Shown: one piece after another, positions 1,834 through 55,722 of the stretch
Numbering within the stretch: the stretch's first letter is position 1
How the letters are laid out: every line of letters starts with the position of its first letter
NCBI GenBank assembly: GCA_025456345.1
Contig: JALOKU010000001.1
Coordinates: 62,001 to 126,000 of the forward strand
Origin: Vicinamibacterales bacterium
GTDB taxonomy: Bacteria > Acidobacteriota > Vicinamibacteria > Vicinamibacterales > JAKQTR01
Length of the DNA: 64,000 bases
Reading direction: 5' to 3'
Made by a program: the position numbers and the translations under genes
Notes under the pieces: model-generated
Database searches by the model: none
What the model saw: the letters and a program-made list of their open reading frames with translations, nothing else
Told to the model about the DNA's origin: nothing

Positions 1834-2541
1834 ATGCGCCGAGTTCTCCTGTCTCTGCTCCTCGTGGGGTGCCTCGCGCCGGCCCGGGCCGGCGCGCAGA
1901 CCCGCACGACCACCCGCAAGCCTGCGCCGCCACCGCCGGCGATGAAGATCGCACCCGCCGAGGTCGACTGCCCGTCGCCTCTCGGCAGCGGCGTCAACAC
2001 GAAGCGCGTCTTCTGCGACGTGCCGATCGGACGGACGCCGGCCGACGGCATCACGATCACCATTCCGCCCCACAAGGGCACGACGGTGCTGACCTTCGAC
2101 CTCCACAACCGGATGACGTATTCGGAGGACCTGGTGCGCGCGGGCAGGGCGTTCGCACGCCTCACGGCCACCATCGGCGTGATGACGATGGACAACACCC
2201 TGATTACACGGGCGGTCGTCCAGAACGAGTTCCGGACGGCAGCCGACCTGTTCGATCGGATCAGCGGGGGAGCCGGGCCAGGCGGGCTGAAGGCGGTGGC
2301 CCCGACCGGCCAGGAGGCCATCCGCGTCGAGTTGCCCGCCGACCTCCTGCAGGTATCTGTGCTGGGAGAGAAGCTGGCGGCGAGGCGCGCGGACGCCGAC
2401 GAGATGTTCACCGGCCCGGGGCGGCCTATCGCCCTCATCAGCAACGTGATGGTGGAGTACCTGCCCGGCGCGCCGGCGAAGGCGCCCGCCAAGAAGGCGC
2501 CGGCAAAGGCGCCCGCGAAGAAGGCGCCCGCGAAGAAGTAG
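1834..2541 (+). CDS. Secreted hypothetical protein with C-terminal Lys/Ala/Pro repeats
   Basis: N-terminal signal peptide (MRRVLLSLLLVGCLAPARAGAQ) and tail PAKAPAKKAPAKAPAKKAPAKK; TATACT 7 nt upstream of ATG. Confidence 0.7.
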   Translation: MRRVLLSLLLVGCLAPARAGAQTRTTTRKPAPPPPAMKIAPAEVDCPSPLGSGVNTKRVFCDVPIGRTPADGITITIPPHKGTTVLTFDLHNRMTYSEDLVRAGRAFARLTATIGVMTMDNTLITRAVVQNEFRTAADLFDRISGGAGPGGLKAVAPTGQEAIRVELPADLLQVSVLGEKLAARRADADEMFTGPGRPIALISNVMVEYLPGAPAKAPAKKAPAKAPAKKAPAKK

Positions 2542-2579
2542 AAGCCAGAAGAAGACAGAAGACAGAAGCCAGAATGGCG
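2541..2579. repeat. Purine-rich heptamer-type repeat (GAAGCCA / ACAGAAG / CCAGAAT units)
   Basis: gaagccagaagaagacagaagacagaagccagaatggcg begins at the last base of the stop codon (2539-2541). Confidence 0.75.
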
Positions 2580-2589
2580 TACGCGATTC

Positions 2590-2620
2590 GGGCCCGGCGA
2601 GGGGACGCCTCACCGGGCCC
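2590..2620. terminator. Hairpin between convergent genes (12-bp arms, one mismatch, 7-nt loop)
   Basis: gggcccggcgag-gggacgc-ctcaccgggccc. Confidence 0.6.
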
Positions 2621-2636
2621 GTGTTGAACCAGCGCC

Positions 2637-2657
2637 TAGCGCCTCGTCCCTAGCCCC
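2637..2657. repeat. Heptamer array TAGCGCC TCGTCCC TAGCCCC
   Basis: Three units in strict 7-bp phase; the stop codon of the minus-strand gene (2650-2652) lies inside the array. Confidence 0.75.
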
Positions 2658-53063: not shown

Positions 53064-54109
53064 CGGAAGATCTCCGGGTTCTTCCGGAAAAAGAGCTCCG
53101 TGTAGGCTTGCCGGAAGGCCTTCTTCACATGATCGCCGTCCTCGTAGACCGAGAGCGGCTGGTCCGGATCGCCCCAGTCGTCGTGGAAGATGGCTCCGTT
53201 CGACTCCAGGTAGGCCCGCAGCTTCCGCACGTACTCCTGGAGCGCCGGCGACTGCGGCGCGGGGCCGTCCGCAGCCGGCCGGCGCTGGACGCGGACGAAG
53301 GCGACGCGGACTCCGGACCTCTGCGACAGGCGCAGGATCTCGGGCAGCACCGACGTGGGGAGGAGTCGATCGAAATCGAGGGCCTCGCCGCCCGGCGCGG
53401 CCATGTCGGCGGCCGCCATCGGGCGCAGCGCCTCGAGGGTGAAGACCTCGTTGTTGATCGCGTCGAGCAGTGTCTTGCGGGCGCGCCGCGCGGCCGACCA
53501 GGCGACCGGCGCCCTGATGATGATGGGCTCGAGCCAGGCGCGGGTCTGGTCGTACTGGTAGGCGCGGCGGATCGCGCCATGCAGCCGGTAGAAGGCCCCC
53601 CGCGCACGCGCCGCGAGGATCTCGTCGAGCACGGGCTCCTGGTTCTTCGCCACGCGGTCGAGCGCCGACGGGTAGACGCGGAACAGCGTGTCCGTGAGGT
53701 TCTCGTCGCGAAAGAAGAACACCACGACCCTGGGCCGGAGCCCGGCGTTGATGACGAGGTTCTTGAACGCGAGGTACCAGTAGGCCGGCCCCGATCCCGG
53801 GTGAAACAGGGCCGCGGCGCCGTGGCCGCCGATGAGCCTCGACAGGTGGCCGGGATCGATGCGGGTGCCGGCCATCGAGTCGCCGATCAGGATGTAATCG
53901 TTGGCGGCCTCGCGCAGCGACGCGACGGCGTCGCTGTCGAACGGCGCCCGCACCCGGGGCGATTCGATCGAGGGGATGTAGCTGGGCGCCGCGTCAGGCG
54001 GCCGGACGGCGCGATTCACGGCGCGGAGGCCGAGCGGGACAAGGACGGCACCCAGCAGGACGGCCAGCAGCGCGGCGCTGCGGCGCAGACGGACCCTCGA
54101 CTCGCTCAT
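53060..54109 (-). CDS. SGNH/AlgJ-like membrane-anchored partner of MBOAT
   Basis: N-terminal TM; NDYILIGDSMAGTRIDPGHL; C-terminal DGDHVKKAF; 4-nt overlap with the MBOAT gene. Confidence 0.72.
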   Translation of the reverse strand: MSESRVRLRRSAALLAVLLGAVLVPLGLRAVNRAVRPPDAAPSYIPSIESPRVRAPFDSDAVASLREAANDYILIGDSMAGTRIDPGHLSRLIGGHGAAALFHPGSGPAYWYLAFKNLVINAGLRPRVVVFFFRDENLTDTLFRVYPSALDRVAKNQEPVLDEILAARARGAFYRLHGAIRRAYQYDQTRAWLEPIIIRAPVAWSAARRARKTLLDAINNEVFTLEALRPMAAADMAAPGGEALDFDRLLPTSVLPEILRLSQRSGVRVAFVRVQRRPAADGPAPQSPALQEYVRKLRAYLESNGAIFHDDWGDPDQPLSVYEDGDHVKKAFRQAYTELFFRKNPEIFR

Positions 54110-54130
54110 GCGCGTGGCCGGCGGGCCGGG

Positions 54131-55624
54131 CTACGTGCCGGCGTGTGCGACCTCCGGGAACAGCTTCACGAGGTCCTCCCTCCGCGGCGGCGGCGTCAGG
54201 AGGCTCACCACGACGAGCAGGCCGATGGAGATGACGGCCGCAGGATAGAAGCTGGGGATGCCCCACGCGTCGGTGCCGATCATGACGGAGGGCGCAAGGT
54301 AGGGCAGGAGCACTTCGAAGAACACCGTGGCCAGCGCGCCGCCCACAATCGAGGCCACGCCGCCCTGGCGCGTCGCCCGCTTCCAGGTCAGGGCCGCGAA
54401 AAGCGCCGGCGTCACCGAGACGCCATACATGGTGTAGGCGAAATAGGCGTACCGCAGCACCGAGATCTCCGACTCGAGGTAGGTCGGGATGAAGATCATC
54501 AGGAAGGCGCACAGCCCCATGACGACGATGAAGACTTTCTGGAGGCCGACCATCTTCTCGGGATCCGACGCCGGGTTGATCATCTTCTGATAGATGTCGC
54601 GGATGACGTTCGAGCTCGACGACAGCAGGTAGTTCATGCCGGTCGAGAGCACGACGGCGCACGCCGCCCCGAGCAGCAGCACGCCGACCGGCGTCGGCAC
54701 CATGTAGCGCGCGGCGTTCAGCACGAGCGACCGGCCGCTCCAGTTCAGGTGGTGCTCGACGTTGTAGGACGCCGCGTACACCGCGATGCCGATGACGATG
54801 GTCTCGACGACGATCGTGCCGACGATCCAGATGGCCGTCGCCTTCTTCGCTTCGGCCGGCGACTTGGCCGCGTAAAACTTCTGGTACATCGACTGCACGC
54901 CGAGCAGCAGGAACAGCGTGGAGAGGAAATAGCTGAGCGCCTTCAGCGCGGGATACTTGCCGAAGTCGGGCGAGAACACCGCGAAGTGCCCGGGCGGCAG
55001 GACGTCGCGCGCGTGCGACCATCCGCCCGCCGTCGAGACGACGAAGGGAAGCGCGAGCAGGCAGGCCGACACGATGATGATACCGTTGGGCAGGTCCGTG
55101 TGCGCCACGGCGACCATGCCGCCGATGGTCACGAACATGATCACGAAGATGGCCGCGATGATCTGGCCCACTTCGGGCGAGATCGCCCCGTCGGTGACGA
55201 CGTTGAGGATCTCGCCCCCGGCCCGGAACTGGTACGAGACGATGGTGGTGAACGCGATGATGAGCGCAATCGCCCCGAACAAACGGGCGAACCGGCCGTA
55301 GCGGACCTCCAGGATGTCCCCGATCGTGTACTGGCCGAACGTGCGGATCTTCGCCGCGATGAAGTAGATGATCGCAATGCCCAGGAACGCCCCGGCGGGC
55401 TGCCAGACCGCGCTCCAGCCCGCGTAGGAGGCGAACTCCGCGCCGGCGATGAACGTGCCGGACCCGATCCACGTGCAGACCAGCGTGAAGACCATCTTGG
55501 TGAGCGACAGGCTCCGCCCGGCCACCATGAAGTCGTCCTGCGACTTGATCTGCCGTGAACGGTAGATGTTGTACCCGGTCAGCACCAGCAGGTACGCCAG
55601 GATCACGTACAGGTAAACGCTCAC
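54131..55624 (-). CDS. Sodium:solute symporter family protein (GTG start)
   Basis: VSVYLYVILAYLLVLTGYNIYRSRQIKSQDDFMVAGRSLSLTKMVFTLVCTWIGSGTFIAGAEFA...GDILEVRYGRFARL. Confidence 0.92.
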   Translation of the reverse strand: MSVYLYVILAYLLVLTGYNIYRSRQIKSQDDFMVAGRSLSLTKMVFTLVCTWIGSGTFIAGAEFASYAGWSAVWQPAGAFLGIAIIYFIAAKIRTFGQYTIGDILEVRYGRFARLFGAIALIIAFTTIVSYQFRAGGEILNVVTDGAISPEVGQIIAAIFVIMFVTIGGMVAVAHTDLPNGIIIVSACLLALPFVVSTAGGWSHARDVLPPGHFAVFSPDFGKYPALKALSYFLSTLFLLLGVQSMYQKFYAAKSPAEAKKATAIWIVGTIVVETIVIGIAVYAASYNVEHHLNWSGRSLVLNAARYMVPTPVGVLLLGAACAVVLSTGMNYLLSSSSNVIRDIYQKMINPASDPEKMVGLQKVFIVVMGLCAFLMIFIPTYLESEISVLRYAYFAYTMYGVSVTPALFAALTWKRATRQGGVASIVGGALATVFFEVLLPYLAPSVMIGTDAWGIPSFYPAAVISIGLLVVVSLLTPPPRREDLVKLFPEVAHAGT

Positions 55625-55687
55625 GGAACCTCCTACGCGGTTCGATGGTGAAAACCGGTGCAGGATAGCACAGGTGGCGGCGGCTTC

Positions 55688-55722
55688 AGGGGAGAGGCGA
55701 GAGGGAACAGGGGAGAGGGGAG
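55688..55722. repeat. Heptamer array AGGGGAG AGGCGAG AGGGAAC AGGGGAG AGGGGAG
   Basis: Five units in 7-bp phase; contains a 15-mer (gaggcgagagggaac) found inverted at 19133-19147. Confidence 0.8.

What the first reader, a model, noticed from the sequence alone, without database searches (positions are those of the whole stretch)
2541..55722. Family of intergenic heptanucleotide arrays starting at stop codons
Six arrays keep an exact 7-bp phase with consensus TNNCCCC (or complement): 2637-2657, 11566-11607, 12956-12983, 19068-19109, 39361-39433, 55688-55722. Units vary at two positions (TAG, TAT, TTG, TGT, TCG, TCT) while phase holds. In four cases the adjacent gene's stop codon lies in the gene-proximal unit: radical SAM gene 2650, pdhC 11603, nuoI 19069, gene 39430. 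Arrays built from CTAG-containing units carry TAG in every frame on both strands, since 7 mod 3 = 1 and CTAG is palindromic, so they act as all-frame translation stops. Short tandem heptamers (STRRs) are known in heterocystous cyanobacteria; I know of no such description for this lineage.
Basis: partly seen in the sequence, partly recalled or inferred. Interest (0 to 1): 0.75.

Follow-up and report, generated by a model that had tools for sequence, protein, structure and literature searches.

The report
Heptamer arms of dispersed palindromic repeats
The 7-base repeats at gene ends in this Acidobacteriota genome are real and mostly form the variable-length arms of small hairpin-like repeats scattered between genes; similar repeats are described in Xanthomonas, cyanobacteria and Geobacter, so this is a well-characterised new variant of a known but poorly understood class.

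Summary
In detail: the arrays are where stated, and four adjacent genes end on a TAG inside the array. In 0.94 Mb of the genome, noncoding 7-bp-periodic tracts number 79, against about 3 at nearly every other period and 0-1 in Markov sequence. Arrays lie nearer stop codons than uniform placement gives (47 of 110 vs 29 expected). When a stop lies inside an array it is TAG in 22 of 23 cases (39% genome-wide).

The interpretation needs correcting. TNNCCCC is one of at least six heptamer subfamilies. Arrays sit at both margins of the gap, purine-rich strand left and pyrimidine-rich right, whatever the gene directions. Many are matched inverted arms of small dispersed hairpin repeats: 147 copies of one arm, and 60 of a 28-bp core embedded in GAAGCAA heptamers that is absent from 29 relatives. 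"All-frame translation stop" is refuted as a general function: 45 of 110 arrays stop three frames, 18 all six, and two subfamilies none.

Close precedents exist (Xanthomonas/Nostoc G-rich heptamers, Geobacter heptamers, Nostoc small dispersed repeats). Most likely these are lineage-specific non-autonomous palindromic repeats whose arms grow by 7-bp slippage, tolerated, perhaps useful, as 3'-end RNA hairpins. Mobility and RNA function are inferred, not shown.

The parts
2542..2575 (+). purine-rich heptamer tract (CAGAAGN subfamily) directly after the stop of the + gene ending at 2541
2589..2621 (.). GC-rich palindromic hairpin core between the two heptamer arms
   Evidence: read from sequence
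2627..2658 (-). inverted-repeat arm of the CTAG/GGCGCTA family (2 mismatches to AGGGGCTAGGGRCTRGGCGCTRGGCGCTRGTC); holds the TAG stop (2650-2652) of the radical SAM gene
11494..11530 (+). degenerate purine-rich heptamers (GRAGNCA type) after the stop of the + gene (GDPD) ending at 11493
11534..11563 (+). core shared with 12924-12953; these are its only two copies in the genome
11566..11612 (-). (CCCCTAG)6 array, GGGGCTA on the sense strand of pdhC; TAG stop of pdhC at 11603-11605 lies in the gene-proximal unit
12891..12919 (+). GTAGYCA heptamers, purine-rich left arm
12924..12953 (+). second copy of the shared core
12954..12992 (-). (CCCCTAG)4-5 right arm upstream of pdhC, between the pdh genes
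19067..19113 (+). GGGGATA/GGGGACA/GGGGAGA array beginning at the TAG stop (19069-19071) of the 4Fe-4S (NuoI-like) gene
19134..19176 (-). imperfect pyrimidine-rich partner tract (CCTCTCG type) in the same gap
   Evidence: read from sequence
39361..39433 (-). mixed CCCCTTG/CCCCTAT/CCCCTAG array; TAG stop of the 39430 gene (no Pfam match) in the gene-proximal unit
55688..55722 (+). degenerate GGGGAGA array inside a tandem gap, not at a stop codon

Best explanation
The arrays are mainly the variable-length arms of several families of small (about 70-160 bp) non-autonomous palindromic repeats scattered through intergenic regions of this Acidobacteriota genome. Shown here: exclusive 7-bp period; intergenic placement; purine-rich arm left and pyrimidine-rich arm right of the gap; arms matching within a locus; dispersed families with conserved cores; restriction of these families to this lineage; TAG recruited as the gene's stop; excess RNA folding. 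Inferred: copies spread by an unidentified mobility or conversion process. Arms then grow and homogenise by replication slippage in 7-bp steps, helped by hairpin formation. Insertions survive where they do least harm, between genes and mostly at or after stop codons, with TAG-bearing units supplying a replacement stop. Once there they are transcribed as long 3'-end hairpins that may end or protect mRNAs.
For: Period: 79 noncoding lag-7 tracts vs about 3 at nearly all other lags and 0-1 in Markov sequence. Polarity: lone purine-rich arrays left 31/36, pyrimidine-rich right 28/34 (p 4e-9); in 18 multi-array gaps every mixed pair is purine-then-pyrimidine. Arms: a strong inverted match occurs in 44% of array gaps within a locus, 16% between loci, 0% after shuffling. 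Families: a 32-bp heptamer arm with 147 copies in own genome and 24 in a congener; the 28-bp core AGAAGGGCCMACTGACGATTGTCAGAAG with 60 copies, 0 in 29 relatives, reversed control 0, in sampled copies flanked by GAAGCAA heptamers and with strong predicted folds. Stop proximity 47 vs 29 expected; TAG 22/23 vs 39%. Array gaps are longer than orthologous array-free gaps in 17/18 pairs, median +72 bp. Folding z below -2 in 45% vs 15% of gaps. GAAGCAA-family copies: 15/28 between convergent genes vs 19% of gaps.
Against: No transposase could be tied to these repeats: the RAYT gene on contig 66 carries other inverted repeats and the flanks of the second RAYT show no heptamers. No target-site duplication or clean empty site was shown. 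Many arrays stand alone or have a partner of a different subfamily (as in the window), so not all are intact palindromes. The left/right polarity was not seen in G007/G019. Compensatory base changes are almost absent in the 16-copy alignment because the arms are nearly invariant.
Confidence: 0.6

Rival explanations
1. Pure replication slippage: heptamers are simple sequence repeats that accumulate wherever coding constraint is absent, 7 bp being a length favoured by DNA polymerase; no element and no function.
For: Heptanucleotides are reported as the commonest repeat class in most bacterial genomes, and 7 nt was proposed as a polymerase contact length (Mrazek 2007 as reported in PMC4679880). 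Units are homogeneous within an array and turn over between sister genomes at the same gap. Period 7 dominates with unrelated units in Acidobacteriota and Gemmatimonadota loci.
Against: The same units recur at many unlinked loci of one genome (82 arrays in 30 rotation classes, top class 13), cores are dispersed with 60 copies, and arms match as inverted partners. Local slippage alone predicts none of these.
Confidence: 0.2
2. G-quadruplex regulators: G-rich heptamers form G4 in DNA or in the 3' UTR and modulate transcription or mRNA decay, as proposed for Xanthomonas and Nostoc repeats.
For: 45 of 110 arrays fit the G4 pattern; purine strand is sense near stops in 61/68; related GGGGAYT repeats form very stable G4 in vitro (PMC4692102).
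Against: More than half of the arrays (including the GAAGCAA and GTAGCCA subfamilies) cannot form G4, yet they obey the same period and placement.
Confidence: 0.1
3. All-frame translation stop cassettes at gene ends.
For: CTAG units give TAG in six frames; TAG is the stop in 22/23 genes whose stop is inside an array.
Against: Only 18/110 arrays stop six frames and 45/110 three; two subfamilies stop none. Arrays also sit in divergent gaps and upstream of starts. Recruitment of TAG follows from landing at a gene end.
Confidence: 0.03
4. Tandem binding sites for a lineage-specific DNA- or RNA-binding protein with a 7-nt register (a heptamer-binding cold-shock or regulator protein).
For: Genome-wide reuse of a few units; MacGregor discusses Csp, S1 and CsrA as possible heptamer binders (PMC4679880).
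Against: At least six unrelated units in one genome; units differ between genera; genes next to the window arrays share no function.
Confidence: 0.07

Closest known systems
G-rich heptameric repeats GGGNATC / GGGGA(T/C)T of Xanthomonas and Nostoc (Rehm 2015, PMC4692102)
   Same: 7-bp unit with variable positions, intergenic, within 50 bp of the stop on the coding strand and often overlapping the stop; on the non-coding strand upstream of starts; inverted pairs (70-75 cases in Xanthomonas); position conserved between species while length changes
   Different: Here several non-G4 subfamilies (GAAGCAA, GTAGCCA) follow the same rules, arms enclose conserved dispersed cores, and units turn over completely between sister genomes
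Small dispersed repeats (SDR) of Nostoc punctiforme (Elhai 2008; recalled from memory, paper not held; SDRs are mentioned in PMC3116915)
   Same: 20-30 bp repeat with a hairpin, embedded in tandem heptamers, dispersed in tens of copies, lineage-restricted
   Different: Different sequence and phylum; no recent transposition shown here
Heptanucleotide elements of Geobacter metallireducens (PMC2700814)
   Same: 49 elements with four tandem heptamers (GGACCGG); class 3 sites with five MTYCTGA heptamers close to the CTTCTGA unit seen here
   Different: Described as predicted regulatory or binding sites; copies also inside genes
REP/REPIN elements with RAYT transposases (PMC3733652, PMC3116915)
   Same: Palindromic, extragenic, downstream of genes, hairpin doublets
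   Different: No GTAG-tagged REP palindrome defined; the RAYT genes here lack flanking heptamers
STRR heptamers of heterocystous cyanobacteria and TAACTGA repeats of Beggiatoaceae (PMC4679880)
   Same: Tandem 7-mers in intergenic DNA
   Different: TAACTGA lies mostly upstream of starts, with a single unit sequence

Membership tests
Intergenic G-rich heptameric repeats (Rehm 2015 class) | tandem 7-mers with a G3-4 tract, at least 2 units, many loci | tested here: met
   GGGGNNA subfamily 48 of 110 arrays; GGGATTC-type also present
Intergenic G-rich heptameric repeats (Rehm 2015 class) | near stop on coding strand, near start on non-coding strand | tested here: met
   61/68 and 34/42
Intergenic G-rich heptameric repeats (Rehm 2015 class) | G4 formation | not testable with these tools
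   45/110 match the sequence pattern; no biophysics
Small dispersed repeats embedded in heptamers (SDR) | 20-30 bp conserved repeat in many copies within heptamer arrays | tested here: met
   60 copies of a 28-mer, flanked by GAAGCAA units
Small dispersed repeats embedded in heptamers (SDR) | conserved stem-loop supported by compensatory change | tested here: inconclusive
   CTGAC-GATT-GTCAG stem is near invariant; 1 of 30 predicted pairs has double changes
Small dispersed repeats embedded in heptamers (SDR) | evidence of mobility (empty or occupied sites) | not tested
REPIN / RAYT system | repeat associated with a RAYT gene | tested here: not met
   two Y1_Tnp genes; the contig-66 copy is flanked by GGGGTCGGGACTAATTACG repeats, the other shows no heptamers
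Reverse-transcriptase (telomerase-like) repeat addition | an RT gene in the genome | tested here: not met
   PF00078: 0 matches in own genome, 90.8% complete
Known structured RNA | match to an Rfam family | tested here: not met
   0 matches in window and in three element loci
All-frame translation stop cassette | stops in all six frames | tested here: not met
   18 of 110 arrays

The most novel reading that the evidence does not exclude
Inverted heptamer arrays with unrelated unit sequences occur in Acidobacteriota, Gemmatimonadota and Rhodothermota loci sampled here, and single arrays in Bacteroidota. A shared but unknown enzyme or replication mechanism may measure 7 nucleotides and build heptad-armed palindromes regardless of sequence, making these a distinct class of bacterial element defined by period and symmetry rather than by sequence.
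Probability: 0.12. Interest if true: 0.8.

Novelty: new variant of a known kind. Interest (0 to 1): 0.45.

Why it matters
It extends stop-proximal heptamer repeats to Acidobacteriota, shows that the G-tract is not the common feature (purine-arm/pyrimidine-arm symmetry and the 7-bp period are, in this genome), and ties the arrays to dispersed palindromic cores. It also shows a route by which repeats define gene ends (TAG recruited from the repeat). It makes the open question of why bacterial tandem repeats favour 7 bp testable by comparing sister genomes, where units are replaced at conserved positions.

Tried and rejected
Telomerase- or RT-like growth: no RT in own genome. RAYT mobilisation: the contig-66 RAYT carries other inverted repeats and the second RAYT shows no flanking heptamers. 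Universal purine-left polarity: fails in G007/G019. One shared core behind all arrays: rejected, since the window core 11534-11563 has only two copies in the genome. One universal unit: GTAGYCA arrays in only 6 of 297 phylum genomes, and little unit sharing between lineages. Rfam: nothing. Intrinsic terminators around pdhC: 0 found. A covariation test on the 28-bp core family was uninformative because arms hardly vary. Own-versus-near-relative orthologous gaps gave no shared array, but only 19 gaps could be compared. The contigs fetched were partly chosen because they had array hits; the main result was repeated on the 604 kb not chosen that way (24 stop-proximal of 58, 12.7 expected).
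Full report
Check of the observation. The six arrays are at the stated coordinates. Lag-7 identity is 35/35 at 11566-11607, 21/21 at 12956-12983, 32/35 at 19068-19109, 48/66 at 39361-39433, 22/28 at 55688-55722 and 9/14 at 2637-2657. The last is weak as an array, but 2627-2658 is a recognisable copy of a 32-bp arm found 147 times in the genome. The stop codons at 2650, 11603, 19069 and 39430 are TAG inside the array; the 55688 array is about 85 bp from the nearest stop. 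Neighbouring genes were confirmed by Pfam: radical SAM, the E2 acyltransferase (pdhC), and a 4Fe-4S protein consistent with NuoI; the gene at 39430 has no Pfam match.

More than chance. The window lies in a 5.07-Mb draft genome. I fetched 0.94 Mb and called genes with a codon-usage script. Noncoding tracts with at least 18 of 21 lag-7 matches number 79, against about 3 at nearly all other lags (46 and 28 at the multiples 14 and 21) and 0-1 in Markov sequence. With a laxer threshold there are 113 against 2-3 at lags 5, 6, 8, 9 and 10. Units fall into at least six subfamilies on the purine strand: GGGGNNA, GGCGNNA, GTAGYCA, GAAGNNA, GGGANTC and GGGGCAT. TNNCCCC is only the first of these.

Placement. 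47 of 110 arrays start within -10 to +15 bp of a stop, against 29 expected from uniform placement in the same gaps (none of 2000 simulations reached it); on contigs not chosen for arrays it is 24 against 12.7. Near stops the purine strand is sense in 61/68; near starts it is antisense in 34/42. The simplest rule is independent of gene direction: purine-rich arrays lie left and pyrimidine-rich arrays right in the gap (59/70 lone arrays, p 4e-9), and in the 18 gaps with more than one array every mixed pair is purine-then-pyrimidine. If the stop codon is inside an array it is TAG in 22/23 cases against 39% of all genes (Fisher p 1e-8), usually with no unit upstream of the stop (13 cases; 5 with one or two).

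What the arrays are. Within a gap the left and right parts match as inverted repeats in 44% of array gaps, 16% of mismatched pairs of gaps and 0% of shuffles. Masking arrays and comparing intergenes shows dispersed families. One has arms AGGGGCTAGGGRCTRGGCGCTRGGCGCTRGTC: 147 arm copies here, 24 in a congener, none in the other 28 relatives searched. Another carries a 28-bp core, AGAAGGGCCMACTGACGATTGTCAGAAG, with 60 copies, none in 29 relatives including two congeners, reversed control zero. The sampled copies have GAAGCAA heptamers on the left and a longer, internally homogeneous CTTCTTG array on the right; the predicted fold is a long composite hairpin of -44 to -69 kcal/mol. Of 28 intergenic copies, 15 lie between convergent genes (19% of gaps are convergent; p 3e-5). 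The window's own shared core at 11534 and 12924 has just these two copies, so the window shows a locally duplicated example with mixed arms.

Comparative evidence. In two single-contig genomes of one genus in the same order (G007, whose size suggests Luteitalea pratensis - my inference - and G019), period 7 again dominates (26 and 22 noncoding tracts per 200 kb; lag 8 gives 8 and 5), but with other units (GGCGTTA, GTAGGCT, GGGAGTC) and without the left/right polarity. Stop proximity holds there too (18 vs 9.6 expected, p 0.0005). Of 61 orthologous gaps, 6 have arrays in both (odds ratio 6.3, p 0.013), usually with different units. Gaps with arrays are longer than their array-free orthologues in 17/18 cases, median +72 bp. 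Other relatives have almost none. Among named loci from other groups, lag 7 exceeds lags 5, 8, 10 and 11 in Acidobacteriota and Gemmatimonadota, more weakly in Bacteroidota and Rhodothermota, and is absent from the Alphaproteobacteria sampled; inverted complementary pairs occur with many different units.

Mechanism. Shown: period, placement, polarity, arm matching, dispersed cores, lineage restriction, TAG recruitment, and excess folding (z below -2 in 45% of array gaps vs 15% of others; 52% vs 23% in G007/G019). Inferred: copying of elements to new sites, 7-bp slippage growth and homogenisation of arms, and a 3'-end RNA role. The 7-bp step has a published suggestion: polymerase contact length favouring slippage (Mrazek 2007, as reported in PMC4679880). 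No RT gene was found, and the RAYT genes carry no flanking heptamers, so the spreading machinery is unknown.

Tests of rival functions. All-frame stop: only 18/110 arrays stop six frames, 45/110 three, and GAAGNNA and GGGANTC arrays none. G4: 45/110 fit the motif, so it cannot explain the class. No intrinsic terminator was found around pdhC and no Rfam match.

Relation to known systems. Rehm et al. 2015 (PMC4692102) report G-rich heptamers in Xanthomonas and Nostoc with the same strand rule at stops and starts, overlap with stop codons, inverted pairs in Xanthomonas, conserved position and variable length. Geobacter metallireducens has 49 four-heptamer elements and MTYCTGA five-heptamer sites (PMC2700814). 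Nostoc small dispersed repeats embedded in heptamers are recalled from memory (paper not held). The present case is a new variant: new phylum in this record, several subfamilies under one rule, and arrays resolved as arms of dispersed palindromes.

Limits.

Noticed in passing
L041 (contig 66) 5750-6850: A RAYT (Y1 transposase) gene flanked by inverted repeats GGGGTCGGGACTAATTACG / CGTAATTAGTCCCGACCCC; the same repeat occurs in 7 intergenes of the sampled DNA, so it looks like this RAYT's own miniature element family.
   Followed up: partly
window 12990-13050 and other intergenes (cluster 3): A second dispersed palindrome CCTGAGCGAGC...GCTTGCGAGCCGAAGGGC (elsewhere CGAGTCGAAGGGC), often next to CCCGAGT heptamers, in about 8 sampled intergenes.
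   Followed up: partly
own genome cluster 2 (contig 61 at 230704 and other intergenes): A palindromic repeat family with ACGGTTTCATGACCYG...GGGTCATGAAACCG ends in about 13 intergenes, with no heptamers.
   Followed up: no
G007 and G019 200-kb stretches (L171-L190): Besides period 7, an excess of period-8 noncoding tracts (8 and 5) was seen in these genomes.
   Followed up: no
L063 5765-5965, L062 5908-5964, L061 5880-5990: The gap upstream of pdhC in three other Acidobacteriota MAGs also holds heptamers, in L062 and L063 with inverted arms, each with a different unit.
   Followed up: partly
L224, L229: These fetched stretches read as zero G+C (apparently masked) and were not informative.
   Followed up: no
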